A stretch of DNA of 64,000 nucleotides from the NCBI GenBank assembly GCA_022829145.1, contig CM040743.1:23286646-23350645 (forward strand). The letters run 5' to 3'. The notes below the pieces were generated by a model. It did no database searches. It was not told the origin of the DNA and saw only the letters and a list, made by a program, of their open reading frames with translations. Source of the DNA: Albula goreensis (lineage: Eukaryota; Chordata; Actinopteri; Albuliformes; Albulidae). Both the position numbers and the translations under genes were made by a program. This document shows, one piece after another, positions 20,155 through 42,290 of the stretch (the first letter of the stretch is position 1; each line of letters starts with the position of its first letter).

Positions 20155-20312
20155 CAACAGGAGCAGGACCCCACAAACCTGTATATCTCCAACCTGCCAG
20201 TGTCCATGGATGAGCAGGAGCTGGAGACCATGCTCAAACCCTTCGGTCACGTCATCTCCACAAGGATACTGAGGGACGCCAATGGGGTTAGTCGAGGGGT
20301 GGGCTTTGCCAG
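20155..20312 (+). CDS. rbms3: RBMS3 exon: first two thirds of RRM2
   Basis: The acceptor is TTTACCCTACAG before 20155 and the donor is AG|GTATGA at 20313. The exon starts in phase 0 and ends after two bases of an Arg codon (local residues 1-53). It opens with [14 protein letters not shown], which carries the RNP2 motif LYISNL (residues 9-14) with its stacking Tyr. The helix 1 region follows ([16 protein letters not shown]), then beta 2 and beta 3 ending in RGVGFAR, most of RNP1. The sequence is nearly identical to mammalian RBMS3, with only conservative changes seen (for example PVSMDE for PISMDE). An open frame continues upstream, but that part is intron: it is unlike the family and is separated by a polypyrimidine tract and AG. 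RRM2 contributes to binding single-stranded nucleic acid together with RRM1, which is encoded upstream of this window. Confidence 0.97.
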
Positions 20313-21409
20313 GTATGACACACCCTCTTCGTTCCCTTCACTATCATGCATTTCACTTATGTTTCCACAAGTTGTGGCTTTATTTGAATTACCTAGCCTC
20401 ATCATGTCTCTTTTTCACTAATTTCTGGAAGGCCCAAACACTGATCCCTGTGGGACTCCACTTCATAAAGGACCATGCTATGACACTACCCATACTGATA
20501 CTGTTTATGTTCTGTCATGCAACGAATTCCAAACCAACTCTGTAATGACTTCTGTAATTCCTACAGATTTCATTTTAACTGTAAGCCACTCATGTGATAT
20601 TTTCTCAAATCCTTTTTTGAAAACCACTTGTGGTCACCTGTCCACTTCCACATTATCAGGGAGAAAGAGGAGGCATAACAGAAGGAGGACAGGCCCCAAA
20701 CCCACAGATGTTCAGGGACAAAGGGATATTAGAGAGAATAAACTTCACTAAGTGTTGCTGCACTCCCCATCACCACTATCAGATTCAATTTACACCAGCT
20801 GGGAGCATAATCACTTTGGACAGGACCACCTAACATCATTAATGATCATTCGAGTTGGTGGCTCAGCCCTCTTCTCCAAGTTCTGGCAGGATGGACACCC
20901 GTGATTGCCTAATTAGGCCTCTGCAGGAGAAGGACGCTGCCAGCCAAACCTAGTGCTGCTTCCTCTCGTGTTCCGCCAGTCATTTCCCACAACACTCCAA
21001 GGGCCAGTTTTAGGATTTCCAAGTGTTAGAAAGCTGTGGCGGTTTTCCCACCATCTTTTTCAGTTAAAATCTGAAAACCCATTACTGTCCAGGATAAAAA
21101 CAAGGAAGTTTGCTTTAGGCTTGATAGTTAAAGTAATTTCACACTGCCACAGAAATTCACAATTTCTTTAGTCTGCAAATGAAGCCTGAATCAATAATCA
21201 TTATGATTTTGGTACCTGTCGATTTATTTTCATTTGAGAACTCCCCTCTGGCTATTTTGTTGCTAGCAGGTGCAGATGATATGCTAAAAAGGTCAGTCGA
21301 GTTTTGGAGTACCTCCCGGTCAAACTCCTGCTCAACAGCTGGGCACAATGTTCCATTAGCTACTCCACTGAGACTGTAACATGACTGGTCTCTTTTCATC
21401 CTGTTTTAG
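20313..21409 (+). other. rbms3: RBMS3 intron within RRM2 (1097 bp)
   Basis: The intron lies between GTATGA and TTTTAG and interrupts the RNP1 motif after its seventh residue. It contains in-frame stops soon after the donor. I see no repeat or second gene in it. Confidence 0.93.
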
Positions 21410-21489
21410 AATGGAGTCCACTGAAAAATGTGAAGTGGTGATTCAGCACTTCAATGGAAAATACCTGAAAACCCCACCAGGCATTCCCG
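21410..21489 (+). CDS. rbms3: RBMS3 exon: C-terminal third of RRM2
   Basis: The acceptor is CATCCTGTTTTAG before 21410 and the donor CCCG|GTAAGT follows 21489, a near-consensus site. The first base completes the Arg codon of the previous exon and the last base starts an Ala codon. The exon encodes local residues 54-79, [19 protein letters not shown] and then KTPPGIP. This supplies the last residue of RNP1 (Met54), helix 2 ([12 protein letters not shown]) and beta 4 of RRM2. The intron before it is only 1097 bp, the shortest in the window, and it interrupts RNP1 itself. The match to vertebrate RBMS proteins is essentially complete. Confidence 0.97.
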
Positions 21490-24319
21490 GTAAGTCATGC
21501 TGATTAATTTCCAGTCGGCTTTGTCTCTTATGAAATATTATGTTTTGCTGAAATCTTCTTGAGTACAGTCCTTTGTTAGTTTTTCTCATATAATGACTTG
21601 CTTATTTTAAAGAGCGACACATTCACACAAGCACACACTATATACATGATGTCTCCCACTGGAGTTAGTATGAAAGCTCAACTTTCCTTGGCAATAGACT
21701 TTTCACTGCGGTATATCTGTGTTACAAAGTTTTTGGGTTCGTTTCCCATGTCTTCCCATTATTCCCCCAAAAATCATACCTTTGAATTACAAAATTATTG
21801 AGTTACCCCATTCTGCTTCACATGACATTTATATATGGCTTTCACCTCTGCAATACTTAAAGTTCATTGGTGTGGTCCAGACTTCCATCGGTCATCAGCC
21901 AATAGGAAACATGAATAATGTGCTAGGTAATTCCCTGGAGTTGAACTGCAATAATAATCATGTTTGTAAAGCTGCAGCTGTGTTTTTTAAAAATCTGGAA
22001 ACTGGTCTATATTATTAGCTTTTGAAAAGGCCCAGGAGACCCTGCATAGACATCCCTTCGATTCTGTAAATATAAAATGTCAGTCTTACAAATGCCATTT
22101 TTATTTAAGGTGAAAGAATAGTATTATTATTGTTATTATCATTATATAGCCACACTTGTGTTGTATTAATGTATTGGTGCATTTATATAATTACCATTTA
22201 TATAATAATAATAAGTAGAAGAAAAAAAGAAGAATGCATTATAAATGCAGTATAAATGCATTATAAATAAATAATTGCAATCAGTAAATCTTGTTCAGTG
22301 TTTGCTTCATTAATTGTAGTTTCTTTACATATGCAGAATATCTTTTAAATATAGTGGTGCATCTCTTCAAAGGAACAAGTTGCAGCTGTGTTCATTTACA
22401 TAATTAGTATTATTTTATTTAAAAGTGACAGAGATGCAGGTTTTACCATCCCTGATGCTAATTGCAAGTATTGTTTCATAAATCTGTCCCTTATTAAATA
22501 TCAGAGAAACAGATTTTAATTTCTCCAACACATTCAAGGCTTTCATAACGTTTTTTTTACATTGTGTCTCCTAGCTATACAGGAAGCTAGTTCAGGAAGG
22601 AAACTAAAGTTACCAGAAAGTGTTAACTTATTGTTTGAAACTATTCTTACATACTAGCACTAAACAAAAAAAAATTACATAATGGCATTTAATGACAATA
22701 ATAATAGTATATGCAGCATAATCTGAGGTTTATTAAAAACTGGCTGGTTGTCACAGCCATTGGCTGATATACATGGCCTGCAGGTGACCATTGCTGTCTG
22801 TTTTTATCATTATTTATACAGAAGCTCTGTAATAGCAGTCTGACTTTGACTTATACAGTATACATACATCAAGTTATACAAATTCTACAGTTTTGCAAGG
22901 ACATTTCAGGTCAAAGTGTCTACAGTAGGCTATGTTCCTGTCGACTATATGAATAATATTTTAAAATCCTAAGAGCCAGGGCAGGCGTCATGTCACAATG
23001 ATGCCATTTCTTCCACCTGTTGGTCCTGGCAGTGCCTTCATCTGTGCTGTGCTAACAGCTTTCAACATTCCATGTACTGTTACTGCATCATGCGTTCAGT
23101 CATCATGTGCTCTGCGATCTTACTTAGATAGAGTCTAACATGTAGACTCTCACACCCTTACTCTAAATGCTCCATTTGTGTAGTGTTGGTATGTTTTTAA
23201 CAACCATTTAGCATGATGCAAGCTTATGACTTTTGCCAAAGCCAGCCACAAGCCAAGCATCTGTCCATATCCCCAAGAAATGTCCCTTGGTCCGTGTTTT
23301 TCACAGGTGTATGTGAATTTTATGGTTGGCCCATCCATGAGGAGGTGATGTTATGACCATGATGTCATTTGGCACAGGTTTCTCCAGTGTCTTTTTTCCC
23401 ATGAAATTATGCATGTCCTGACAACATGTTTTCATATCAAATCCACATATGGGTGCAGCTGTTTCTGCTAACATTTACTGTGTTGGCACAAGCCCAGGCG
23501 ACGTGACGTTTATGTGTTTCAGATTGTCAGGTACAGGAATGCAATACAGAGCATTATCTGTGTGGGCATTTCTGAATTGTCTCTCAATAATGCATGCTTG
23601 ATGCTTGGTTTTTATTGATCTGTAACATTGAGTTGACACCATTGTTTTGGCTAATTGTTTTTTACCCATGCTAAATAACTCAAAAGTAAATGCATTACTC
23701 ATAAACTTTTTTCAATCTTAATGAAATTAAATTTCAGTGTCTCTATGAGATGTTGAGTATACCATCACTTGGTAGATTAAATCCAGCTGGAACTTGTTGT
23801 GCAAGGGTAATGAATCAAAATTTGAAACTAAGCATCGACAGACATTAGTTATGTCTCTCCTCCCCTGCTATCAGTGTGACATAAAAAGACAACACTGCAC
23901 AATGAGTGAAGTTCATTTTACAAGGGAATTATGATAACTCTATTCATACCAAGTCTAAAAGACTGTCTGGGCTCTGTGTTCTCCCCATTCCTTGTTTCAG
24001 CTTGGAACACTGTGCAAACATATGCTCCGGATGTGCTCTTTTGGGCTTGTGGGATTTTAGGGATTTTTTTTCTGCCTTTTAGCCGCTGCCAGGAGAATGT
24101 GTGGACGCTAATGGCCATGCTGGCCTCATCCAAACAGGCTTGACTCCCATAATTACATGTGTGGTAAACCAAGATGCTGATGCTGTCCAAGATAATGATG
24201 ACAGTTGTGTAATAATGTAACCCAGACAAGAAAAAGCATGCCCGTGCTTCAGTGTATGCATCCATGTGCACATGTGTGTGCATGCCCATGTGAGAGTATG
24301 CATGTACCAGCGCTGTGTG

Positions 24320-24323
<4 letters not shown>

Positions 24324-24392
<69 letters not shown>
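24324..24392. repeat. (TG)n microsatellite, about 34 units
   Basis: Uninterrupted TG dinucleotides, followed directly by GGGGGGG and then a G/A-rich stretch with GAGAGAAAGAGACAGAGAG. The repeat creates spurious open frames on both strands. Confidence 0.97.
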
Positions 24393-24393
<1 letters not shown>

Positions 24394-26368
24394 GGGGGGG
24401 TAGGGGAGGGGGAGAGAAAGAGACAGAGAGGCAGTAAACTCCAGAGCGAATGTTGAACGTAATGGCACCTGGGACTTGCTGCAATGGTTTGCCATCAGAA
24501 TGGATAACTTGAAGTGTCTCGTCTCCTCAATATGTCCAGACTGTCCTCCGTAGCCGTCTGATCCTCCTTGCTTTGTGATTCTTTATTATTCTGCTCCTTC
24601 CCAACATCGAATCTCAAGGCGGCTACTGTCTCTGACCTTTCCGGCATGACAGACGCATTATTGGGAGCAAAAAATCCCGCTCTCTTTTCGCCAGTCTCTG
24701 TACCCTCTGAATTAGGAGGCTCAGACTGCAAACTGCTGCAGGCTCAGACTCTCAGGCTGGGCAGATATTCAGGAAATCTCAGCTGGCGTAAATATGCGGG
24801 GCTGATGTATCCGCTTATTGCGATACAGCAACCACACAATGTATTAACTCCTGTCCTTACATCATTGTATACAGTACAATAAACTCGACAGCAGTTGTTG
24901 TTCAGAGAGAAGGAAACTTGTGCAATGGCAGATGTAAGAATGGTGCAACATAGCATTTGGAAAAGGAGGGCCAGGATTCCAGTGGTAAATGTTTATGCAC
25001 AGCGTAAAACCAGATGAGAGGATCTGATTTACTAAATTTGAGTATTTGGTCTCCTAAGCTTTAATTTCTTATGGAGGAAAATCTGAATAATCTTAGTGCA
25101 GGAATGGGGAATTAATTAAAAGAAGGAAGGAAGCGGTTATGCCATGCATACACACAAACTCCACATTTTTACACCTTTTAGTGCTAACTATAGCTCTATC
25201 TGTAAACACAAATACACATAGAAATGAACTGTGTACTTGGCTGCAAGATTTTACTTCCTTGGAGTAAATAGTAATAGCTCTTGCTCAATGCAACTTGTTT
25301 TGAACAGGCTCTTTGTGCACATCAACCAGATACAACTACTGGCAGTTGTGTTAAATTGCATATATAGAGTTTACTCTATGGACACTAGGTAGCAGTATAC
25401 TCTTTCATCAATAATTGGCATCTCATCCATGTGTTTCTACACTCCAGGAGAGATTGGGGGACAGCATCTCGACAATCCGAACACTACCACATATTCATAA
25501 GTTTCATGCCCTCTTGGACCCAACCATCTCTCTCTCCAGCCATGTTGTCAGTATACACCCCAGGTGGTTTTTCTCTACATTCGCATAAAAATACGAACAG
25601 TACCTTTGCCTGTTTTATAGAAGATAAATGACGTTTCTGCTGGTTTATGGGAAAACTGCATAGCATAGCTTGTCTTTCTCCAAACTGAAGAACACACATT
25701 TGGTGAGAAATAGTAAACACACACTCATATTCACAGGTGCATTGATGATACTCATATTCTTTCTGTATTCTAAATTATGTAGTTATGTCTACGGACTGCG
25801 GGTGCCCACTCAGCTGAACACACAGCTGAACAAACCAGGGCTTCCACCACATGCACAGAAGCATATATTCAGACTAACCATGTGTCTGCAGCCATCAGTT
25901 ACATATATTGTTACTGAGTCACAAATTGGGAATGGGGCAAGAGATTGTTTTATGCACGTAGTGTTAATTACCACCATGTTAATTGGATACTCTATCTCTC
26001 ATTTGCAATCATGCTTTTCACAGATGAAGCAGGATTTTACAGTCATAGAGGGGAGAGAGAGAGAGAGAGACAGAGAGGAAACTGGCAAGCCATGTTAATT
26101 ATTCAATTACCCATCACCCAGCCCAGTACAATGCATTCTGCAGGCACTCATCCCAAACATTTAGTCAGCATGCACTTATTCTTGTTGTGTGCCATTAAGT
26201 CTTCCCTGCCAAACAGACATGGCTTCTCAGTGTCTTTAAAGCTATTCTTAAACTCTATGCTGGTCACAAGGGTCGGCTGTTGGGTTCCACTTCCTGTTGT
26301 ACTCTTATTGACTCTGCTACTGCCAATTTCGTAAGCGGAGCCCAGATTTTAATATGTTAAAATGAGCT

Positions 26369-26393
26369 TCTCTCTCTCTCTCTCTCTCTCTCT
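26369..26393. repeat. (TC)12 microsatellite
   Basis: Uninterrupted TC tract. Confidence 0.95.
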
Positions 26394-26639
26394 GGAGATG
26401 AAATTTAGTCACCCTCAGTAAAGTTTTGATAGACAGCCAAACAGAATTGCAGCAACTTTTTTTCAATCTAGGACATAATTGCTGTTTTAAAGTCATTCCT
26501 AATGAAACAGGACCAAAACTTGTTTGTGTTTTTTTTTTTTTGTCCCAACTGAGCTACTCTGCAGGACCCAAATTACAGATCATTTTCTGCACTGCAGAAT
26601 GAGAGGCTATCAACAACATACATTATCTGAAGAGCATAT

Positions 26640-26960
26640 CAGGCTGGCACATTACCTGAAACCTACCTCCATCAGCCCGACACATTACCTGCAGAACAAA
26701 TAAATCAGTTACATTACCTGTGCATAAACTCAAATTTATTAAGCATACCATAGCACCTACAGATATATTGGGTGTGTGAAAATAGCTGCAGATTCTGCAA
26801 CATATTGCAATACCTCCAGATATATTCAGTATTTCACAATGTCTGCACATATAGTCAGCACACCATAATACCCATAGATATATTAGAAATATCACAATAC
26901 GTCTAGGTGTATGCAGCATGTCACAATGCTTGCATATATTGTCAGTATATCACAGCACAT
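26640..26960. repeat. Degenerate minisatellite, unit about 30-45 bp
   Basis: Motifs like CACATTACCTG or CACAATACCT followed by AGATATATT-AGTAT recur at irregular spacing at least eight times. Early units (26650-26720) are built on CACATTACCTG, later ones on ATATATTCAGTAT plus CACAATGTCTGCA. Copies differ by many substitutions and small gaps. Confidence 0.7.
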
Positions 26961-27669
26961 GAAAGCCCCTTTCTTACAGCAAAGGCAAATTCAAATGCAT
27001 GTATGCGCCCTTCAATTTTCTACTGTTTCGTCTCACATCGGGCACCAGCACCAATGTCATAATAATAAAATCACCTGCCGCTTCAAATGACCTGTTGAGC
27101 TGCCAGCGGCAACATTTTCAATAAGATTTGCTTTCAGAAGCGATTGCTCCCATCATTCCCTCCATGGGGAAACCAAAAGGAAAGTTCCTACAGCCAGCAG
27201 CATGGTTGGGGGGAGGGGGCATCTGGGTTAGCAGAGTTGGTGTTTTTTTTTTTTTGGGGGGTGACCTGTCAAATTGCTCTCCTTTGTTAAGATGAATGAC
27301 TGTGAAATTGGGAAATCAGACAGTGAGGAGGAGGGCTACCTGCTATACCCAACTGTTTATAGACAGTGCAGTGGCCACAGCTGGCTGTTGGTAATTAAAT
27401 ATCCTGTCTTTTTATTAGATAATAACAATGAAGTCCAAGCCTTTCAAATGATATTGCCACCATGTTAAATTCTGACTGGATTTTTTTTTTTGCTACTTGA
27501 AAATACTCAACAAAATCTATATGACAAAAGATTGTGTGACTTGGATAATATTCTTTTCCGAAATGGCAAAATTATAAATGATGGGCTGGATTACAATCTC
27601 TCAATGTTAGTGGACAAACTGGCTAAACTACAAATCCCATAATTCTTAGCAGAACAAAAACCCATGGGT

Positions 27670-28023
27670 GCATTTCAATACTTTTTCTTGTCTCCTCGTT
27701 TCCTCCACTCGTCTCCCAAAAGTATGTGGAGGAAAGGAGGGGAGGAAACCAGTGGAGGAGAGGAGGAAATGAGTGGAGGAGACAAGAAAACGAGGAGATG
27801 AATCCAAAATTGGAACAGCTAATCTGATTAGCCCTTGGCTATTGATGAAGTCGTGTAACTTCGGGTTGCTTCCGAGGATACCTAAGCCAATCAAAAGATA
27901 CTGGTCATGAGCACAACGTCACCCAAACATTTGAAAATACTTGTATCCTTCGTTTAGAGGAAATGGAGGAGAAGAGGAGATGAGTGGAGGAGACGAGGAG
28001 ACAAAATTTGAGTATTGGAACGC
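27670..28023. mobile_element. Foldback/MITE-like element rich in GTGGAGGAGAC repeats
   Basis: The ends GCATTTCAATACT (left) and GCGTTCCAATACT (right, reverse strand) match at 11 of 13 positions and lead into TTGTCTCCTCG on both sides. Several direct copies of GTGGAGGAGA-type units lie inside. The superfamily is uncertain. No clean target duplication touches the ends; CTTAGCAGAAC (27645-27655) and CTTGGCAGAAC (28028-28038) flank it at a distance and could be relics of one. Confidence 0.65.
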
Positions 28024-28321
28024 TCTCCTTGGCAGAACCGCCATTGAAAACCTCCCAAAACCCTGTCCAAACAACCAAAATAGCACGAGAGAAATTTAAG
28101 CACCCTTAACCAAAATTTGGATTGATCTGTAATGTTGCACTGTAAACTCTTTCCTGAAACTGTTGATTGTGTTTTTGTCCTCCATACTGATTTCTCAGTT
28201 CCCTTTGTTGCTCTTTCATGGCTTATGCATTAGGTTATGTGGCTGCAATACTACTTTACTATTGCTGGAGTTTACATGAGCTTTAGCAGAAACAGGGCAT
28301 TGTAGTTTATGACACCAAATC

Positions 28322-28445
28322 AGTGTGCATGTGAGTATGTGTGTGTATCTGTGACCATATGTGCATTCACATGTATGTGTATGCATACATGTCTATATGT
28401 GCACATGTCTATGTATATGTGCATACATGTCTATGTCCTTAATGT
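28322..28445. repeat. Degenerate ATGTGC/ATACATGTCTATG repeat
   Basis: Repeated ATGTCTATGT, ATGTGCA and GCATACATGTCTAT words, mostly alternating purine and pyrimidine. Confidence 0.75.
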
Positions 28446-30302
28446 TCTATGTCCATGTGTGGCATGCATTAGCATAGATTAGCATATGTGCTTTTTGTAC
28501 CTCCATGCCTGTGTATTTCTGCTTAAGTGAGCTTTGGTGCATTGGCATGAATGATGGGATCCAGCACCACAACCGATAAATTCAATTACAGCCTGTTATC
28601 ATTATGAAAGCTACATCATTATAATCAGGCTTTCTTCAATTTGTCATGTCACTCATCTGCTTTTTGCTGTATGGCTATCAAATCGTATTTTTTTTATATT
28701 TGGCAGACCAATGCTTTCGAATATTATTCTTTTAAAAAGCTTGCACACTGCATGAAATGTATCCATTACATGCTGCATCTTAATGGAATCTCTTCTAAAA
28801 GACTAAATCCCTTTTGTGTCCCTCCTATCTCCTATTAGTGCGGAGACATGGGGAGTTATTAAAGACCTTGTTAATCAGATCGATTTTGAAAAAGAATCAA
28901 TTCCCTCAAGCTCTTTCTCATTACAATCAATCCCCACTGACGGACAATACTTAGAATTTGCCACATGCTGTTTGTTTTTCCTGTTGAACCGTATCAGTCA
29001 CTAAGACACTGGAAAAAGCTTTTACAAGCATCGGCTATACGCAACACTGCAATGCATTAAACGATTGTATTACAGAAATGACTAACTGCTCCGTTTTCAA
29101 AAGTTCTGAGCTGAACTCATGGTAATAAGTCTCTGTCTCATTGCGCTGTAAGTGATTTTCGTTTAGGAGCCGATGCAATCTAAGAAAGGTGACTGCCAGG
29201 AAGCTGCAGTCGCATAGTGATAAGGGATGGTTTTCATGGTGGTCAATGTCAGATCAGACCATGGTTACATTATGTAGTGACTCTGAAATTTTACAGACCA
29301 AGAGGTTTAATGTCCAACACTCTGTGTTTTTATTTTCTCTTATTTCTTCTAATGGGCAATAAAGAGATGTTCACAATGTTAAGCATCAAAATATTGTCTT
29401 CATCCATACTTCACATCACAGTCAATGTAGTTCTTCTGAAATATCCTCCCTGAAAAGTGTTTGTCAGGACTTACTTTTCAGCCAGGGTTACAGACAAGTG
29501 CTTTTTTTCATGGATCATATGTCTATAAACCAGGAGCTGAGCATCAGCCTACAGTAACTGACACTAGTAGCCTGATAATTCAGTGAGGATCATTACTGAG
29601 GCCCTCGGATGTTCTAATCTATTTGCTATCTGGTAGCTGATGCGTCAAATTAAGATTGAAATGAAGGGGCTAACTTATTTATTTTCTGTATATCCCCATC
29701 AGTTTTGTGGAAGGTAAAACAATTATCTTAAACTGTCTCTCCAACTACACCCCATCCTGGCATCAGAGTTCCTTGCTTGCTTTGGCTTTGTGTATCGTAC
29801 ATGGCTATTTTGGAATTGTATGAAGGGTGTGTCCACATAATTTTTGGTAGTGTCACTTTGGGAGCATAGTCCCAGCAGAGGTGTAAAAGTGGATAGGTTT
29901 CATAGTTTAATGACTGCTAGGTGTGTGATGGGCATAAACACACATAAGCCAATGAGTGTCATCTCTCATTTACTTTAAAAGTCACAAGCATTTTCACAAT
30001 GGATGATGGATCACAATAGATTTCCCTCAAAGTAGCAAAAAAAATCCCAAGCATCGCTTCTGAAGAAAATGGAGCAACCCCAGATATGTCTTTTTAAAGA
30101 AATTGGCAAAATATTTATTGAAATATTTTAAATATTTATTGAATGGTGACAGCCTAGCCTAAAAACCATAGGCTTTTATTTGTGCATACAGTCAAAGCTC
30201 CAAATGTGGATTTGTGTCAAATAATGAATTAATGAATATTACAATTAATAAATTGTATTCCAGAAGTAATACTCTACAGCACAGCCAGTGCAGCTGCTCT
30301 TA

Positions 30303-32035
30303 TATTACTTTCACTTGGTATAAGCAAAGAGTTGTGCTGACTCTTAGTAAAAAGTACTTCTAGTAATATGTGATCACTGCTAATTCTATGACCACTGACT
30401 TCCACTGATGAATTCCTCTTATGCAGTTCTAAAACTATGCAACTTTTGATAACAATGACAGATGACAAGGAAATAAATGTACATGCCTATAAATTCTGTG
30501 TACAGTCATCTCATGCTCTCAATGTCTTTGGAAATGTATTACGTCTACAGCTTCTTTCTTTTTTTGGTTATGGTTGTGTTTCCAGTGAGAGTGCAGCCCA
30601 GCTGGTGTAAGATATATGACTGTGGCACTGCCAGAGCATTGCATGGGTGGTCTCTAGGCACTACGTCTACAATTCACCCGCACAACATGGAAAATTATAC
30701 ACAGGCTCCAGCAATTATATTTACACCTCACTCCATCCAGCTTTTCTAGGGGAGACGATATCAGATTCACATGACAGCGAGTTTAATTGAACAAACAGAG
30801 GGCCAAAAAGACCAGTGATGCACATAGCTTTGTGTGTGTGTCTGTGTGTCTACCCAGAATGTTTCATCAGCCACCTTATGTCAATGGGATTTTGATGTGG
30901 CACCCTTGAAATCCCATTCACATAAGACCAAACAATATGGTAGCAATGTGGTTATTTGTCAGGGACTGGGACAATTTTTTTGTCTTTATCAATTTTCCTA
31001 GTAGATGTCCTTCTAAATTCTCTGTCTATGAATATGCATGTTTACATGAAACATTTGGCGTCACATATGAGAGATTTCTCTTTTCAGTGGTTCATAAATG
31101 AGGACACTGTAGCATGCTCATCTTGTAATACTTATTTTCAATGTCAGTATGCCTCAGATGAATGGGTTTTGATGGTGGCGTATCGAATTGCCTGATGTCA
31201 TATCTTAGAAAGTCTTAACTCAAGATTTCTACAGTCTGTATCATTGATTTATGGAAAGTAACATGACAATATGTCAACAGATGAATGAGCTGGCACACAT
31301 TCAGATCTCACTTAGATTGCTTTCTCTCACTCTCCAATGTACATGCACTCTATCTATCTGTTGCACTCACATATACAGTCATGTGCACACATACACAAAC
31401 CCACACACACAACACACACACAAAGCTATGTGCATCATCTTCCTTTTAGGCCCTCTGTTTGTTCAATTACACTCTGTGTCATGTGAATCTGATATCATCT
31501 CCCCTGGATGGAGTGAGGTGTAAATATAATTGCTGGAGCCTGTTTATAATTTTCCATGTTGTGCGGGTGAATTGTAGACGTAGTGCCTAGAGACCACCCA
31601 TGCAATGCTCTGGCAGTGCCACAGTCATATATATTACACCAGCTGGGCTGCACTCTCGCTGGAGACACAACCATAACCAAAAAAGCAAGGAGCTGTAGAA
31701 TTAATGCATTTCCAAGGATATTTAGAAGATAAGATGGATGCATACAGTCTTTCTATGCATTTACAGTAACTTCCTGCCCTTCTGTATCCATGAAATGCAC
31801 CCTAATGATGATTCATTAAGAAGTCAACTGCTTGTTCTAAGCATCTATTTTTTCCTACGTCATCAACACAACAACCTCTCATTTGCCATAACTGCATAAA
31901 TAAATCATAGCGGAAATCAGTTGCCATAGAATTACCAGTTACTAGAATAATTACTAAAATAACCTTGAATATAACCATTTTTATTAGTAAGAGTCAGTGC
32001 AGCTGCTTGACTACTAATACCAAGTGCAAGTTATG
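30303..32035. repeat. Large imperfect inverted repeat, 1.7 kb
   Basis: The left arm (30303-30850) reappears as the reverse complement in the right arm (31396-32035), separated by about 545 bp. The inner core (30561-30804 versus 31449-31683) differs by eight substitutions and one 9-nt indel. The stretch 30612-30699 is identical over 88 bases. Outside the core, similarity drops but stays traceable through matching landmarks such as CACTTGGTAT, CTGACTCTTA, AATTCTATG and TTATGCAGTT. The innermost ends carry (TG)n and (CA)n on the two sides. I recognise no transposon termini or target duplication at the outer edges. Either two copies of one sequence lie head to head, or a region was duplicated in inverted orientation. 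Confidence 0.93.
30875..30926 (+). other. Hairpin with 18-bp stem in the loop of the large inverted repeat
   Basis: CTTATGTCAATGGGATTT (30875-30892) pairs with AAATCCCATTCACATAAG (30909-30926): 17 of 18 positions match, with a 16-nt loop. It is shorter than a usual miRNA precursor. It lies between the two arms of the 1.7-kb inverted repeat, so it would form the apex of that structure. Confidence 0.8.
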
Positions 32036-33514
32036 AAAGGGCAAATATGAGGTTGTTTCAACAGGCTCCATCATCGCTAAATGTGACTATTGGTAATATA
32101 GCCCTTAATAAAATGGTTATGTGTTACAAACCCCTCTCAAAAATAGCTATTTCTGGTGAAATAGAAATATTTAATAACTCAATACATTGCACAAGCCATA
32201 TAGACCTGCAGATTATTTGGCTGCCATTACTTTCTGCCCAGAGACTTCATTCTGCAGATGGACCCTTTACAATCACACACTCATACAAATTGTCCTGAGC
32301 TGGCTGTAACTTGCCATGTATTTTCTGGTCAGTTCCCCAGGATATCCTTTGCAGAATTGCTTATTCACTAGGAGATGGGGAGAGTAGTGCTATCTGATTT
32401 CAGCCTGGGAAGCAAATACCCTCCCAGATCCTGGAGGCTTATAAAACATGCCTCTAAGTGGTATTGATTATAAACATCTCCCTCAACCCATTACCATGTC
32501 TCAGACTGCTCTTTGTAAAAAAAAAAAAAAGTGTTTTCTGACCTCACCATCAGAGTTGCTGCTTTTATTCTTTCTGCATCCATAAAAGATCATGTATCCA
32601 AAGGCCAGAGTGGACTTGCTTTTTCCTCAGCAGATGTTTCTATTAAGCGACACTCACATACCTTAAATTTTCACCTGTTATTCATATTCACAGATGAATT
32701 TTTACAGTACTGAAGAAATTAATTTAAAGTATCACTTGCTCAGGATAATCACACCAGAGCCACATGTTTCATCCCATCTTTCATTCACTGGAATAAAGTT
32801 GTGCAGAAAAGCTGAAGTCTGGCATTAGCAGCATTCATCCTCTCTGCACTTTAAGTCAATGGGAGAGCATTATTTCATAAATGTGTCATTAATTTTGTCT
32901 AGCAAAGAAATGAGTATACATTTCATTTCTGTTCCTCATACAATGTTTTTCATGTCATTTTGGTGGTGGTTGAACTCGCGTGTTTAGACACGTTGCTCGC
33001 CTGTTGAGTGTTAATATTTGTTTGTGAGCTGAAATCTCAATAACCTCCATCAGATAAGTCAATAAATTCCACTCAGTATGTCTCGATGAATATAAATCTA
33101 GAATAAACTATTCTTCATTGTATATGAAAGGCACTAAATTCATTTTGTCTCCAGAAAAGTTCAAATAGACAACAGTTGGACCCAATACCATGCTAATTGT
33201 TTAACTATGACCTGTATCATATTAATATACAGACACCAGGACACATTCGTCAAATAAGCCACAATGTAATATTGTGAAGATACTGTATTTGTTTGTTTCT
33301 GACTTTAATCAGCAGCATTCTAAGTATATTGTAACATCACTTACCAGAAATAATTAATAATAAAACGGATTATTATAATGACTGAAGATCAGACACTAGA
33401 TAGGCTATCTCTGTATCTGTCAATATTCAAATTACAGCGTCAGACATCTGCAAGAATGTGCGTTTGATCATGAACAGTCCAATCACATCGTCAGCCCAGT
33501 CTTGGCTTTATGTT

Positions 33515-33715
33515 CATAATTAGGCACTTGGCAGACATCCTTATTCAGAGTGGCTAGTACAGCTTATCTTTTGTATAAAACACATTTGCATGGGTGGATA
33601 TTTTAATGGAAAAATTTAGGTACCCTTATGTCTGACAGCAGTACTCCATCTGGAATTGAGCCTGCAGACAGAGTCACAAGCAAGTTTCCCAAATCATTAT
33701 ACTGCACTCTTACCT
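33515..33715. repeat. Second old copy of the same dispersed repeat
   Basis: ATTAGGCACTTGGCAGACAT, TTATTCAGAGTGGCTAGTAC, GGTGGATATTTTAATGG, ACAGCAGTACTCCATCTGG and GAATTGAGCCTGCAGAC follow the same order as the family consensus (AGCAGACGC, TTATCCAAAGCGACTTAC, CTGGATATTTACTG, ACAGCAGTG, GAATTGAACCTGCAAC). The orientation is the same as the copy at 2563. Diverged, with no intact termini. Confidence 0.6.
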
Positions 33716-34759
33716 TTTCGACCCCTTTTGACCTGCAGGACACTTCAAAGCCTTGAAATGTAACTTCAATATGCTGGGAATAAAGAGATCCAATAGTCTA
33801 TGCACTTATTCTTATACCCAGGATTCTTTTCTGAAAAGAAACTCAAGTTGTCTTTGAGCATGACTGAAAATGAATAAAGGCCATGCTTTCATTACTCTAT
33901 TGATTCCATTTTGAACACTTTTCAAAGTCAAGGGTTCTACAAAGTAGAATACATGGAGAATAAACAGCAAAATACTGTCTCTGGGTCACATTAGTGTTTC
34001 CCCAAGTGCTACAGCGTTGCTAACGATCCATAGCTAAGAAATGGGTTTTTAATTTGAATTTTAAATTTAAATCATATCAATATCTCCTTTGAAATGGTGC
34101 CAAATCTATTTGCAGTTTCAAGTTTACAAAAACAACTGAATAACTTTTGTGAAACACTTCCCTCCCTTTCCCCCTCACCCCTACAATATAACATGAGGCT
34201 ATTTTCAAGACATTTTAAGAAGAAAAGCAGTAATAAACAACACCACAAAGACAATATCATGAATTTCATGTCACCACTAAACCACCCCCCTTCCCCCTCT
34301 TGTTCTGTCGAAAAGGAATCTAACAAAAATAAGCAAAGATTAATTGGTTCGTTCCTTAAAGAACCTCAAATCAGAAAAAGGGTACCCTGGGACTTTTAAT
34401 TGCACACTCATTTCCGTCTTAAAAAAGAGATTGTCTAAATCCCTTACTCTGTACAGTTCAATGAGAGGATCTTGCTTACTAACAGGCAGCATTACTGAGA
34501 TCCCCCTGCTGTTTTTCTGAATGTATTTACATACCAAAAAGAACTCTATTTATTACAAAGGTAATAGAAGGGATAATTCAGCGAGTAGAGATGTTTTCAT
34601 TGTTATTGCCCTCATTGCAATGCAACGGTGGGGCATGCTTCCTAATCCAAACGACCAAATGGCTACACTGATTCAGTGCTTTAGTATTCATAGGTGAACA
34701 GTTCCCTCAAAAATACCCATTAATATAATTGTATCCGAATTTTAGTATTTAGTATAGTG

Positions 34760-35246
34760 TAGGGCTGCATGATATAGAGAAACATGCAGTTAGAGATTAT
34801 TCTGTGGTTCATTGTGGTGGCAGTATGCAATGTGATAAACCAAAGATTAATGAATTTTACTCAGTTTCTATTATCATATATTTAAGTATATTGAAAACCT
34901 GAAATAATGGCATTTCAAATATGCGTGTGTTCTGTTCTTCCTGGGTAAAGAAACATCACTCCCAACTTCTCATTTTGACGACAAGTCAACTGGTATGCGA
35001 AGAGGTTCTTTGCTTCACACTGGATTCACTGCTCCCTGCTCATCTTGTGTATGATGTCATCGATGTGCACGCATCTGCATCAAGAGCCAATTGTGCATGT
35101 GTGACTATTCTCTGCTCTCCACGTTTCCATGCAGTTGTCAGCTCATTAAACTAAAATAACAAAATTATTGCAATACATTGTGTTATACATATCGCATTTA
35201 ATTCATTTGCAATATTTAAAAAAATGCCATGAATTGTACAACCCTA
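34760..35246. mobile_element. Non-autonomous hAT-type MITE, 487 bp
   Basis: The left end TAGGGCTGCATGAT and the right end, read on the other strand as TAGGGTTGTACAAT, are imperfect terminal inverted repeats of the TAGGGCTG type common in fish hAT elements. The element is flanked by 8-bp direct repeats GTATAGTG (34752-34759) and GTATAGCG (35247-35254), one mismatch, the size typical of hAT insertion. The interior has AT-rich subterminal sequence with TGCAATA-type motifs near both ends. No transposase is encoded. The single mismatch in the duplication and the diverged ends suggest an old insertion. Confidence 0.85.
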
Positions 35247-36243
35247 GTATAGCGCCCCGTGAACAGCTCAACTAAATGTGATTCATTTTTAGCTCATCTG
35301 AAATGAAAACTGGTCCAAAAGACTGACAAATATTGGCTTAGCAGATACTGTTTCCCAAAGCATTCTACGCAATCAATGTGATCCTTTTAAGCAGCCTATT
35401 GTTTACCTGAGAAATTCAGGTTATTAATGAAGCGAACACCCTGACAGGTAGAGGTGAGGTTTTCTCTGGTGTATGACAGTATGCCAGAGGGGCCTGAAGG
35501 CTTCTGGGTACTCTCTCTTTGGTGCCATGGGCTGCTCAACTGTAATGCATCAACTGAAGGAAGAATGATTCTGCTTCCCACTCAGGAGAACATCGCCGAT
35601 GCTGTGGCTGCTTCATCGGATACAGGAATTAATTGAGAAGTGTGATTATCTTTAGTCTCTCTGCCCCTGGGTCAAAACACAAAGAGTGCTTAACAAAGGA
35701 CTGACTCAAAAAAAAAACTTCCATCACATCTGAAATCCTCATACACCAAGGGCTGCTTCAGTTTAGCTGGTGCTTCTCTCCTGCGTTTTTCCAATTTTCA
35801 CCCCCTACAAGGTATTAAAAATAATACCTGCTGTGCCAGACTAAATATTTTCTATTTCATCATTTCTTGCCCACGAGAAAAAAATTTCTGTGGACCAAAT
35901 GAATTTGGCTGCGGAGACTGTGCTGAGTTTCGCTCTGTGAACAAGGGCTGCTCTTTCAGGTGCTGCGTAATTTGTGGAGGCGGTGGAATGGGGTGGGGGG
36001 GGTTGGCGGTGGGGTGAGACAGAGAGAGAGAAGAGATATCGCACCTGGCTGTTGGACAAACTAGTGGAAAGGTTGTGTCAACAGCATTGTGATCACAGGG
36101 AATACCCTGCCAGGTCCATCCATGGGGTCTCACAGAAAATTACACCTTTTATGTGCTACCACCCCAACCAACTTCCCTAACTATGTTCCCATTCCTTTAG
36201 CTTTATCCATGGTGAATGTGTATCTTCAATGGAATACCTGATT

Positions 36244-36510
36244 ATTAGTCAGTCCTTTTATTACAATTAAGTAGCTACGAGGCTTTTATTGATTACAATC
36301 AGCCATCGTACTTATGTTGACCATTAGTCTGGTACAATGGCTTGATTGATATTTAACAGTAATTGTGGCTGTGCCAATCTTTAATTCTATGCTGTCGCCA
36401 TTAGTAATCATTAATCATTTACCATGGTTTTGTTGATCGTTAATTAGCAGTAGCTCCGTCATTGGTCAATAGTTAGGAACAATGGTTTTATTGATTATTA
36501 ATCCTTCACG
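36244..36510. repeat. Degenerate repeat array rich in ATTGAT and ACAATGG motifs
   Basis: Four related segments begin GGCTTTTATTGATTA (36281), TGGCTTGATTGATAT (36339), TGGTTTTGTTGATCG (36425) and TGGTTTTATTGATTA (36483), spaced 58, 86 and 58 bp. CCATTAGT- or GTCAATAG-like sequence lies between them. ACAATGG occurs at 36334 and 36479. Confidence 0.6.
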
Positions 36511-36799
36511 CTAGAGTTATTTTCAGAAACCATAGCAGCATTGGTAATATGGACGATGGACAGGCCTTGGATAAAATCTCACCACTGAGAGCTATGGCAG
36601 TAGAGACTTCAGCACATATTGAAAACATGTCTCTTTTTCTCTGAATTTCTGCAGTGGCGGGATCAAACTGTTAATATGCACTTTCGGAAATAATTGTGGT
36701 AAGACCAGTCTGCTCCTGTAATTGTACAGTCTGGGATTAAGATAGGTCCATGAGGACTGGAAGAATGTTCTCCTTTATTGCCCTGTCAGTCATTTTATA

Positions 36800-36831
36800 T
36801 TAATATCCATACAGTGTTAATATCCATACAG
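36800..36831. repeat. Short tandem duplication
   Basis: TTAATATCCATACAG occurs twice in a row, separated by TG. Confidence 0.9.
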
Positions 36832-39800
36832 CAAAGGAAAAATTGGAGATCCACTTAATCCTTTTTATTTCATGATGTGATGTTGAAGCACGGCTGAAGT
36901 TTTTAACCCCATTGACAGACCTCACAAACTCCAGGGTTCATGAAACATCAGTCTCTGACAGGTATATTTCCCCACCCTCAACCCTAAAGTGTTGTGTGCC
37001 CACATATGCTCTCAGTTTTCATGTATTAGTACCTGTCTTTGTGTTTATGTGCCTTCACTTTTATCACTTGCATTGTTAATGCACCAATAGGCTTTATCTC
37101 TGCTCTGCGCTTTCATCCAAACAATGTAAACCTACCTTCAAGCATTCTAGCATTTTTTTTAGACGAGTGATTTTGTTGTGAGAGTGAAGAAAATGTTAGT
37201 GAATGTTGTGCAGGTTATGTTGATGGATTTCTCTGAGGAATGAGTCTGCATTGATCTTAAAATCTTTTTCCTTGGTTTTTGTTTTTTTTACAAACCCACT
37301 TCATTCACAAACAGAATATGAACCCTTTTCTCCCCTCCCCTTGTATAGACTTTACATGCTGTTGCCTCTCCTTGTGTTTGGATGGGAATCCCCTTGCTTT
37401 GCTAAAGATGGGCCTGACCTCCCATTGTATCCCTATGGACACAGTGGGCAGCCTTCCTGTCTGTTTCCTGACTGACTGTCAGTCTGACAGCTGCAGTTCT
37501 GAAGCGTAGCACCGAGAGGGATGAGCGCGGCTTTCAGTAACACATTATTCTCCACTAAGCGTTCAATGATGTATCGATCCTTCACTTTCTTTGCTGGGGG
37601 TTCGCAGTACTCTGAAATAATGTTTCTCACTATGGAAAAACCTACCGCATAAACCCAGGGTTGTGATCCAATGAAAATCATCAATTACCATCTGCAGTAT
37701 TGAATGGGAAGCTCAGGTTGGCTGTCAGCAACATTACATCTGTATTTATGAAGAATGTTTATTCAAAGTTCTGGAAGGGCAACGCAAACGTCTGCTTCCC
37801 TAGACTGTGGATGAGGCACCAGCCATCCTGAGAGCTATAGACTGCTATTGATGAGTCAAAACTCATCAGGGATGGCAGCATATGCAAGGCATCAGGGGTA
37901 GGGGTCTTATCTCCAAACAATTGTCTCCACCCCCTCTTCCTCTAAGCCTATCAGCAGGGGCTCGGAGGTTCAGTCACTTACCCTCCAGGAGACATTGACA
38001 GGTGTGAGTAAGGAGCCCAATCCATCACATGGCTAGAGCTCTTCTCCTTGTCCTTGCCGACTGACCAAAGGTTTAATCATAGTTTTTTCTCCTCCGAATT
38101 TAACCCCCAGCTACTGCCTCCACATCAACAGTTTCTCTGTTTTCCTCAGCATGTAGCTGTTAACTATCTTAAACATTTTATGTGAAAAATATGATTCAGG
38201 AAAAACTTATTTTAGTCCTCACAAATTGATCTCTTTTTGCACTAAGCATAGCATATGTTTGTATCATGCTAAAGCTTGAACAGTTTAAAATTTTAACTGA
38301 TTTAATCTATTGTTTTGTTTTCATATTTGCCTCTATTTGTAATATTTTTATTTTTCATGGATGGACAAGTTCCCCTTGATCAATAAGGAGGAGACTGGAT
38401 GTGTCATTTGTGCAGGGACTTTCCTCTTGTTCGTCTCCTCGGTCAGTCTACCTGAGAGAAAGAAATCTACATTTATAGTTAACAATATTAAAAAGTGTTT
38501 TAAGCATATGTACAGCTGTGCCACCATGGAACACTCTACCACCGTAAATTGAAGCTCCCTGTTGGTAAATTTCTCTCACGGCAAATTGAAGTACTGCCCA
38601 GCTTAGTCTGTATAAATAAGGACTTAATGTACTGAATTATGTTTTTCTTCTATTTCCATTCTCAAGATACATAATATTCTTTGATTTCAGTGAAGTATGT
38701 AGATGTATGAAAATAACTTAAATAAAAATTCAGAACAGTAAATTAGGTTGCCATATCCTCCATTTTTTCATAAAATAATATTCCATGAGCTAAATGCTAG
38801 TTAGGCCGCAGTTTACATCCTGAGAGCTGTAGGGCATGTTTATTCCACCAGACCAGATGGGTCTTTCTATAGTTTACAGCAGGCTTTGATTAATTAACTG
38901 TGATATTCCAGGAAGAGCGGAAAATGAAGAAATGTAATAAAGCTTACTGTAAGACCGGACCGTCGTTCCAGCTCTGGCTGCCTTCATAGAGCTGAGGTTA
39001 TTCTTACCGCAGCCCGTTTGGTCCAGGTGAAATCTTTCCATTGTTCCTTGGCCTGTCATCTGAAGCAAGGGTGTCTGAGAGAGTGTTTGGCTTGCAAAAA
39101 CAACGTTTATTCGTTTGCCATAGCAACTCAAATAACAATTGTCTAATTAAGGGTTCTAGGAATGTCCTATTAGCGATAATAGTAGACCTCAAAAAATGTT
39201 TTGCTTCATTTTTCAAATATGGCCTGCAAATGAGTCCTAATAAACCAGTGGTTGTGTGGACTGATTTTCACCCTTCCTCCTTTGCATACCACACAATACA
39301 AAATATATACTTTGTAGACGCAGTGATGGAAACTCCAAGAGAAAGTAACCTTTCTCAGCGCTACAACAGACCTATTCCAAGTCTCCAAATTCCTGAGGTT
39401 CCTCCTAGTTTTATTATTTCAGTAATTACCATTAACATAGCGTTAAGTATTTTCCATGGTGCATGTTAGTACTTACAGTACATGTCTTGTGTAGAGGTCT
39501 CTGCCACAGCAGACAGTGTACTCTTGAAGTTAAATGTCTGGAAGTGCAAAACCACAAAAATAAATTTTGCTTAGATCAGGGTAGGGAAAATGAAAAGCAG
39601 TGTCCTCCATCACACAGCAATGGTCTGTGTTTGTTTTATCGGGCCATCAATACCAGCAACGTTAATATGAAGGCGTTGACAGGGCCCACATCAGACCTGT
39701 AGCTGCAGGTGTGGGACAGTGTTTGGACAGGGCTGCTCGGCTCACGTACTCCGGGTGCGTTTGATCCCAACTTTATCCTCTGTCAGCTACGTCCACAGGC

Positions 39801-42183
39801 AGAGCCCCACCAACACAAAGAACCTACAGTAAGACCCCCAAATCCCCCACGAATCAGCTTCCTGTTCTCATGATCCGCCATGAAACACTCGCCAAGCCTG
39901 GACTCTTTTCTTCTTTCGCTATCTTCCCTCAGCAGTTTGCTCAGTCCAGCATCTGCCTTTTTTTGTTCTTTTTCATTCTCAACCCATCTTTCATTGTCTT
40001 GCACAGCTCCCATCTGCCTGAAGGGAGCAGTGGAGAATAGCCTTTAAAAAATTCCTTTCATAGGAACCTTGGGATTTTTTTTTCATTGACTTTGCTGCTT
40101 GTGGTTTTACCAAAGTAGAGAAAGACGAATACTGGTTCAGATTTTCACAGAGGTTATAACAGGAAAGATCAGAACTGAGCAAGGTTATTTGAGGAGAGGA
40201 CTCATGCCTTTATATAGTCCATTAGATTGACATTAATCAAAATAGAAGACAAAGCATTGGCAAAGATCTGTACTTCCAGGGGAGAGTTTGAGGTCATACA
40301 GTTTGGCTGTTTGGCTGAAGTCTGCATTCATGTAGAACGTGCTGTATAGTCTGTGTCTGGACCTTAAGTGATTTGCCGAATCGATTCCAATTTTGTGATC
40401 ATGCAAAATTATTGCAAAATTCTGTCAATTTCATGCATTATGTTTTCTGTGCCAAGTGAATGAGGAACATGACTGAGGTACAGATATCCCTGCTCATGCT
40501 CTTATATAGCACTGTGTTTTTTCAGTGCTGCCTTGTCATTTACTTCCTGTATTATTCACCAGGGCATGTATACTTCATTCCAATTTACAAAAACAAAAAT
40601 TCTGTTCCAGCAGCTTCAATTTTTTTGTTGCACTACAAAATCAATATTCCTGAACAGACCCATCTATTTTTGATTATTCAGGCTAAAATTTACAACAAGG
40701 GCCATAATTCTGAGAGTTAGTCTGCTGACACAACGTTTCATAAAACAATAACTTTAAAACTAGAAATTCCTATAAAAGGTAATACCATAACTATAGTTAG
40801 CAATAAATAAACTTTACCATGGCCTCAAAATGTTTCTACATCACCAAAACTAACATATTGAGACTGATCAATAAGTAAATTTTAAAAAGATTGTTAACAA
40901 CAAGAATATATTTGTACATTTCTGGGAAATATATACACAAGTCTGGGAAATGAGCACCAGTTGGCATCATGTCAGTTTGCTCTGCCATTAGACCATGCAA
41001 GGCTAAACTATTACGAGATGTTTAACACGTTCAGTGTCTGTCAAAAGAACATATCGTTCTAACTATGCATGTCAACACCATTTTCATTGATGGGGGCACT
41101 CGGGTTGACCAGAACAATATATTCATTAACTAATGAGTGTTTATCAAGCTGTCCTCTTAGTAAAATTAATCCTTTTGAATTCTGCAAATTTTAGCAGATG
41201 AGTAATAAAGTGATACAAAGTACATATAAAATCACATTCTGGTCTTGTTCAAGCATAAATGTATCTCATCGGTCTATTATACTTTTCGTTCTCTGGAATT
41301 ATAATGTGGTCACACAGAGTTGTGCATGTTTTATAATTCAAGGAGAACTCTATCAACCAATGGAGACATTACCACTGCTGTGGTGATGGTGAAAGAGCAG
41401 CAAGACTGCACAGAAAAAATGAGGAGAGGTTGCAATATAATATAGCTCTGAGATGTGCACTTAGACTCACATTTTTATAACATTGGTGTCATTTTGTGGC
41501 AACAAGTACATTATAGGAACATCAAGAGCATGTTATGGCTTTTCCACAGAGTCATACCACTCATAAATTCCTTTCCAGTGCTAATCCTCAGCAGCAAACT
41601 CTGTTCTCAGGCTTGTGTGAAAGCACTGGTTTCCTTATCCCTGATTCTGGGAGTTCTGAGAGCTGTGAAGCACTGCCCCTAGTGGGCACTGTCAGAAAAA
41701 CAAGCTGGCTCCTATTTCACCCTGTGCTCAGCATAGATTGGTGAGAAAAGTCCCTCCATGTACAGCAAAAGAACAAAACCTCTTGTCTCTACTACAGACA
41801 TCTCATGTTACAAAAAATTCCCACTTCTGTAGACAAAAAAGGGAATGCCATAAAGAAATTAGTCTTGGCTGACTGAGCTGCTGAACATTACCGTCTTTAA
41901 GTTATTTACGAGAGCGATTACCCTGATTATTATTTCAACAATACCAAGCTATGCACTTTCAAGGGCTGCCAGTTAGGGATTTTGATGTTGGGTTGGTGTG
42001 GGAGCACTTGCCAAGAGTAGCGGAGAACGTCTGAGAGTTGCATCAGTGTTCAAGAAAGGGGGAGCGAGGAAAACAAACCCGACTTCAAAAAGACTTCAGT
42101 TCTACAGAGGGCCACTGTTTCCTGGGCCTGATCCCGTCGGCTGACCCAGTGGTTTTGTTGTGTCCTCTGTGTCTCCCCTTCAG

Positions 42184-42290
42184 CCCCCACTGAGCCTCTG
42201 CTGTGTAAATTTGCCGACGGAGGGCAGAAGAAGCGACAGAGCCAGAGTAAATACCCACAGAATGGACGGCCATGGCACAGAGAAGGCGAG
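42184..42290 (+). CDS. rbms3: RBMS3 exon: end of RRM2 and basic linker
   Basis: The acceptor is TGTCTCCCCTTCAG before 42184 and the donor GGCGAG|GTGAGT follows 42290. The first two bases complete the Ala codon begun at 21489; the exon ends in phase 0 (local residues 81-115). The product starts [18 protein letters not shown], the conserved RBMS segment following RRM2, and continues with [17 protein letters not shown]. The KKRQ cluster and the Gln, Asn and Lys residues make this linker basic and polar, consistent with RNA contact outside the RRM fold (inference). An antisense open frame over the same stretch is a shadow and shows no family resemblance. The preceding intron is about 20.7 kb. Confidence 0.96.

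What the first reader, a model, noticed from the sequence alone, without database searches (positions are those of the whole stretch)
30303..32035. 1.7-kb head-to-head inverted repeat inside the largest RBMS3 intron
The two arms, about 550 and 640 bp, are reverse complements and lie 545 bp apart. In the pre-mRNA the stem would be a long duplex, a natural substrate for ADAR editing and able to bring flanking splice sites together, for example for circular RNA formation or exon skipping. I see no transposon termini or target-site duplication that would make it an ordinary repeat insertion. The sequence shows the structure; the role is inference.
Basis: partly seen in the sequence, partly recalled or inferred. 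Interest (0 to 1): 0.75.

Follow-up and report, generated by a model that had tools for sequence, protein, structure and literature searches.

The report
Inverted duplicate of ancient noncoding element
Inside an intron of a fish RNA-binding-protein gene, an old conserved noncoding sequence, probably a gene-control element, sits in two nearly identical copies facing opposite ways; the RNA hairpin this makes is most likely a by-product.

Summary
The inverted repeat is real: arms ~30303-30850 and ~31403-32045, ~550 bases apart. It is the only long one in the window; 20 control 10-kb regions had none. No dispersed family was found: a core 30-mer with up to 3 mismatches occurs at exactly two places in the 932-Mb genome, the two arms. 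The intron is not the largest of the gene.

Arm identity is very uneven: inner core 266/277, outer parts 198/255 with many indels. The core also has an outside relative: 31510-31616 matches, same orientation and collinear position, the equivalent intron of the second rbms3 gene (76/104 aligned bases; 0 of 1000 shuffles as good). Some alignment settings show this match only weakly or miss it. No inverted repeat was found there.

Best reading: an ancient conserved noncoding element, probably an enhancer, was copied in inverted orientation beside itself; both cores stayed alike through purifying selection, perhaps helped by gene conversion. The right arm is probably ancestral.

A long pre-mRNA duplex is predicted and ADAR editing is plausible, but no sign of selection for pairing was seen. 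Both arms lie in one intron, the wrong geometry to promote circular RNA. Enhancer function and other fish genomes could not be tested.

The parts
30303..30850 (-). Left arm: the inverted copy (matches the right arm and the second rbms3 gene in reverse orientation)
   Evidence: Alignment; minus-strand match of 30628-30741 to the second rbms3 intron
30553..30841 (-). Core of the left arm, 266 of 277 aligned bases identical to the right core
   Evidence: only two genome places for the core
30851..31402 (.). Spacer, no similarity between its two halves above shuffles; its right end is CA-rich
31403..32045 (+). Right arm, probably the ancestral copy
   Evidence: Same orientation as the match in the second rbms3 intron, slightly higher score than the left arm (160 against 152)
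31412..31691 (+). Core of the right arm
31510..31616 (+). Block shared with the intron of the second rbms3 gene (C20:7594249-7594358), 76 of 104 aligned bases identical
21490..42183 (+). Host intron of the C3 rbms3 gene, + strand
   Evidence: Exon matches; splice sites read

Best explanation
The core is an ancient conserved noncoding element of the rbms3 intron, most likely a transcriptional enhancer, already present before the gene was duplicated. In the C3 copy of the gene a stretch of about 600 bases holding it was duplicated in inverted orientation next to itself. Unconstrained outer parts diverged to about 78% with many indels; both cores stayed about 96% identical, mostly by purifying selection on the DNA element, perhaps helped by gene conversion between arms. 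Proposed working: two copies of one enhancer acting on rbms3 or a neighbour regardless of orientation. Shown: the repeat, its uniqueness at the sensitivity used, uneven identity, collinear relative. Inferred: enhancer activity, selection on both copies, direction of duplication. The pre-mRNA duplex and any editing are taken as side effects.
For: Core 266/277 against outer 198/255 identical, Fisher p 8.7e-11. Block 31510-31616 matches the equivalent intron of the C20 rbms3 gene in the same orientation; Smith-Waterman 27 against maximum 23 (mean 15.4, sd 1.44) in 1000 dinucleotide shuffles, and top under five of five scorings against 520 control 1-kb windows, e.g. 27 against 18. It is one of eight plus-strand matches at E<=0.01 between the two introns, all eight in collinear order, six of them outside exons. 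Within the block the arms differ at 1 of 107 bases, in the rest of the core at 10 of 170 (p 0.055, hand-entered counts). At the one differing site inside the block the right arm has the C20 letter (read by eye). The C20 intron shows no inverted repeat. Core found only twice in the genome. No Rfam match at gathering score in the window; none of four ORFs reaches a Pfam cut-off.
Against: The C20 match is modest and depends on scoring: with lenient gaps it barely beats controls (238 against 235, and 249 against 236, of 732); blastn +1/-1 gives E 0.038 for the right core and no listed hit for the left; blastn +2/-3 misses it; Gumbel fits give only p 0.011-0.075 per kb, though the fit is poor; unrelated control regions reach 38.4 bits against 40.1. 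Gene conversion alone could also give a core alike in both arms. No chromatin, reporter or cross-species data were available.
Confidence: 0.62

Rival explanations
1. Gene conversion: an old inverted duplicate whose inner 290 bases were recently homogenised between the arms; no selection on either core is needed.
For: High identity is one continuous inner tract ending at the spacer junction, with a fairly quick drop outward (windows 0.94 to 0.72 over about 75 bases). GC of both cores is 0.44-0.45 against 0.34 in the outer arms, as GC-biased conversion would give.
Against: It does not explain why the same tract holds the block shared with the C20 gene. The C20 block is GC-rich too (0.60), so the GC is probably old.
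Confidence: 0.22
2. Selected RNA hairpin: the duplex in the rbms3 pre-mRNA (ADAR substrate, Dicer substrate or splicing brake) is the function, and pairing keeps the cores alike.
For: Very stable predicted fold, 88-pair uninterrupted helix, far below 20 other window pieces.
Against: No excess of G-U-compatible differences on the transcribed strand: 14 against 17 for the other strand, p 0.72. The related intron keeps a single core with no inverted partner found. No Rfam match at gathering score. A fold of a near-perfect inverted repeat is stable by construction.
Confidence: 0.1
3. Remnant of a foldback or long-terminal-inverted-repeat transposon.
For: Two inverted arms around a unique spacer is that layout.
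Against: Only two places in the genome match the core; no target-site duplication or sharp terminus seen by eye; no Pfam match at cut-off (four ORFs). Whole-genome search does not reach copies near 75% identity: the outer right arm did not find its own partner.
Confidence: 0.05

Closest known systems
Conserved noncoding elements kept by teleost co-orthologues (Woolfe and Elgar 2007, PMC1896008; passages seen)
   Same: Noncoding block shared in order and orientation by the introns of two duplicated genes, with shortening of the conserved part. That paper reports significant length degeneration in one copy for 62% of overlapping pairs, and places the teleost duplication 300-350 million years ago.
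   Different: Here one of the co-orthologues holds the element twice, side by side and inverted. Conservation outside this genome was not tested.
Duplicated CNE families (dCNEs), mentioned in the same paper (figure legend passage)
   Same: More than one copy of one conserved noncoding element in a genome.
   Different: Those dCNEs lie near paralogous genes elsewhere in the genome; this pair is local, in one intron.
Intronic inverted repeats such as paired Alus (ADAR substrates, circRNA drivers)
   Same: Would form a long intramolecular duplex in pre-mRNA (predicted).
   Different: Not a dispersed repeat, and both arms lie in one intron, the competing geometry.
circRBMS3 (human, exons 7 to 10; PMC10042691, abstract and passages)
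   Same: Circular RNA from the same gene.
   Different: No link to this repeat: a human circle, and a pair inside one intron does not flank any exon.

Membership tests
Conserved noncoding element | Noncoding | tested here: met
   Far from exons; four ORFs without Pfam match at cut-off, best weak one E 0.014 below cut-off; indels of 1 and 2 bases in the C20 alignment
Conserved noncoding element | Shared by anciently separated loci in the same place | tested here: met
   Collinear match to the second rbms3 intron; modest and scoring-dependent
Conserved noncoding element | Conserved between species | not testable with these tools
   No other fish genome is held
Enhancer | Drives expression in an assay | not testable with these tools
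   No functional data
Foldback or inverted-repeat transposon | Multiple genomic copies | tested here: not met
   Two places only, the arms themselves; copies below about 80% identity would be missed
Foldback or inverted-repeat transposon | Target-site duplication and defined ends | tested here: inconclusive
   None seen by eye in the ends printed; an old one may have decayed
circRNA-promoting inverted repeat | Arms in different introns flanking the circularised exons | tested here: not met
   Both arms in intron 21490-42183
ADAR substrate | A-to-G changes in RNA reads | not testable with these tools
   No RNA data; only the fold is predicted
Known structured RNA | Match to an Rfam family at gathering score | tested here: not met
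   0 in the window; four weak matches in 30200-32150, all below gathering scores

The most novel reading that the evidence does not exclude
A dual-use element: an ancient enhancer was duplicated head-to-head, and the resulting pre-mRNA hairpin has itself become functional (editing, or tuning of rbms3 splicing), so that DNA-level and RNA-level selection together hold the two cores nearly identical.
Probability: 0.08. Interest if true: 0.65.

Novelty: new member of a known kind. Interest (0 to 1): 0.36.

Why it matters
Local inverted duplication of a conserved element is a small natural experiment: one old copy, one flipped copy, and an unduplicated relative in the second gene. With other fish genomes it would show whether both copies are under selection, whether gene conversion couples them, and whether an intronic hairpin is tolerated as a by-product. 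It is also a caution that a genome-unique intronic inverted repeat need not be an RNA device.

Tried and rejected
Transposon pair: rejected for lack of other copies, within the stated sensitivity. Circular-RNA driver: wrong geometry. Structured RNA families: none at gathering score. Coding exon: no Pfam match at cut-off in four ORFs. Arms longer than stated: the apparent extension to 30208/32133 is not above chance. Assembly foldback: not tested with reads; unlikely because the arms differ.

Steps that gave nothing: pattern was badly made (wrong spacing) and says nothing; (bacterial promoter scan) was irrelevant; the viral-contig scan found 0 and does not bear on fish conservation; the first script failed and was rerun; one of three blastn settings did not run. 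Papers: ten searches. RBMS3 with intron and conserved noncoding found 0 papers; RBMS3 with ultraconserved found 3, seen in listing only.

Full report
The window has one long inverted repeat: arms about 30303-30850 and 31403-32045, about 550 bases apart. A self-search of the 64 kb at E<=1e-10 gave this pair alone; the same search of 20 control regions of 10 kb (7,499 bases N) and of the C20 intron gave none. Similarity beyond the stated outer ends is at chance level: 23 of 197 other pieces score as high.

Host gene. Exon matches to a recalled RBMS3 protein lie on the + strand at 20152-20322, 21408-21497, 42183-42299 and beyond. The intron, read from the splice sites, is 21490-42183. In the genome-wide protein search the C3 gene shows larger gaps upstream, of about 34.9, 26.9 and 39.9 kb, so the intron is not the largest. 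Strong matches fall in six loci, on C3, C20, C5, C12, C6 and C14; I read these as two copies each of rbms1, rbms2 and rbms3, as expected after the teleost genome duplication. Only C3 and C20 match the first residues of the query, and I take them as the two rbms3 genes (inference).

Not a dispersed repeat at the sensitivity reached. DNA searches with each arm found two places each, itself and its partner. The spacer found itself and one 52-base CA-rich match on C17. A 30-base core pattern with up to 3 mismatches occurs exactly twice in 932 Mb. The limit is shown: the outer right arm did not find its own diverged partner, so copies near 75% would be missed.

Uneven arms. Core 30553-30841 agrees with its partner at 266 of 277 aligned bases (JC distance 0.041) with 5 gaps of 14 columns; the outer parts agree at 198 of 255 (0.265) with 15 gaps of 113 columns; Fisher p 8.7e-11. 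One duplication with uniform neutral decay does not give this. Either the core is constrained or it was homogenised.

An outside relative of the core. I fetched the equivalent intron of the C20 gene. Block 31510-31616 matches C20:7594249-7594358 in the same orientation, 76 of 104 aligned bases. It scores 27 against a maximum of 23 in 1000 dinucleotide shuffles searched over both strands of the C20 stretch, and above all 520 control 1-kb windows in five of five scorings. At E<=0.01 there are eight plus-strand matches between the introns, all collinear; six lie outside exons: 24097-24225, 27260-27343, 28569-29002, 31510-31616, 36644-36725, 41831-42122. The left arm matches the same C20 place on the minus strand. 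Outer arms and spacer showed no C20 hit among the four best listed per query.

Results against this match, told in full. With lenient gap costs it barely beats controls (238 against 235 and 249 against 236, of 732). In a 510,703-base database it reached E 0.038 with +1/-1 for the right core, was not among the best four for the left core, and was missed with +2/-3; a third setting did not run. Gumbel fits gave p 0.011-0.075 per kb, from a poor fit that included N windows. With the intron as query, ten hits at E<=0.05 came from the 20 control regions, the best 38.4 bits, against 40.1 for the block; one off-diagonal minus hit and one hit to the reversed C20 sequence also appeared. I rest on the shuffle test together with collinearity and orientation.

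Polarity. The right arm has the orientation of the C20 block and scores slightly higher (160 against 152); at the one site in the block where the arms differ, the right arm has the C20 letter (by eye). So the left arm is probably the inverted copy. Within the block the arms differ at 1 of 107 bases, in the rest of the core at 10 of 170, p 0.055: suggestive only.

RNA reading. The fold is far more stable (-838.8 kcal/mol) than 20 other window pieces (mean -452.9, sd 45.4, lowest -534.1), with an 88-pair helix; but any near-perfect inverted repeat folds so. Differences compatible with G-U pairing on the transcribed strand number 14 of 68, against 17 for the other strand, p 0.72. No Rfam match reached gathering score. 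Back-splicing is affected by competition between pairing across flanking introns and pairing within one intron (PMC10401440, one passage); this repeat is of the second kind. Editing by ADAR is plausible as a by-product and untested.

Mechanism. Most likely an ancient noncoding control element was copied head-to-head in the C3 gene and both cores have stayed under constraint, with some gene conversion possible. Enhancer function is inferred from the class of element, not shown. The main rival, gene conversion alone, fits the uneven identity but not the coincidence with the C20 block. Comparison with other fish would decide; none is held here.

Noticed in passing
28569-29002: Strongest noncoding block shared with the second rbms3 intron (446 columns, 65% identity, E 2.9e-38): a good candidate regulatory element in its own right.
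   Followed up: partly
41831-42122: Noncoding block shared with the second rbms3 intron (E 2e-28), ending about 60 bases before exon 42184; may include splicing control signals.
   Followed up: no
24097-24225, 27260-27343, 36644-36725: Three weaker collinear noncoding matches to the second rbms3 intron.
   Followed up: no
31370-31440 and 30828-30850: The inner ends of both arms are TG/CA-rich; the duplication junction may lie in a simple repeat.
   Followed up: no
28357-28459: Short tandem array of about 38-base units, two copies.
   Followed up: no
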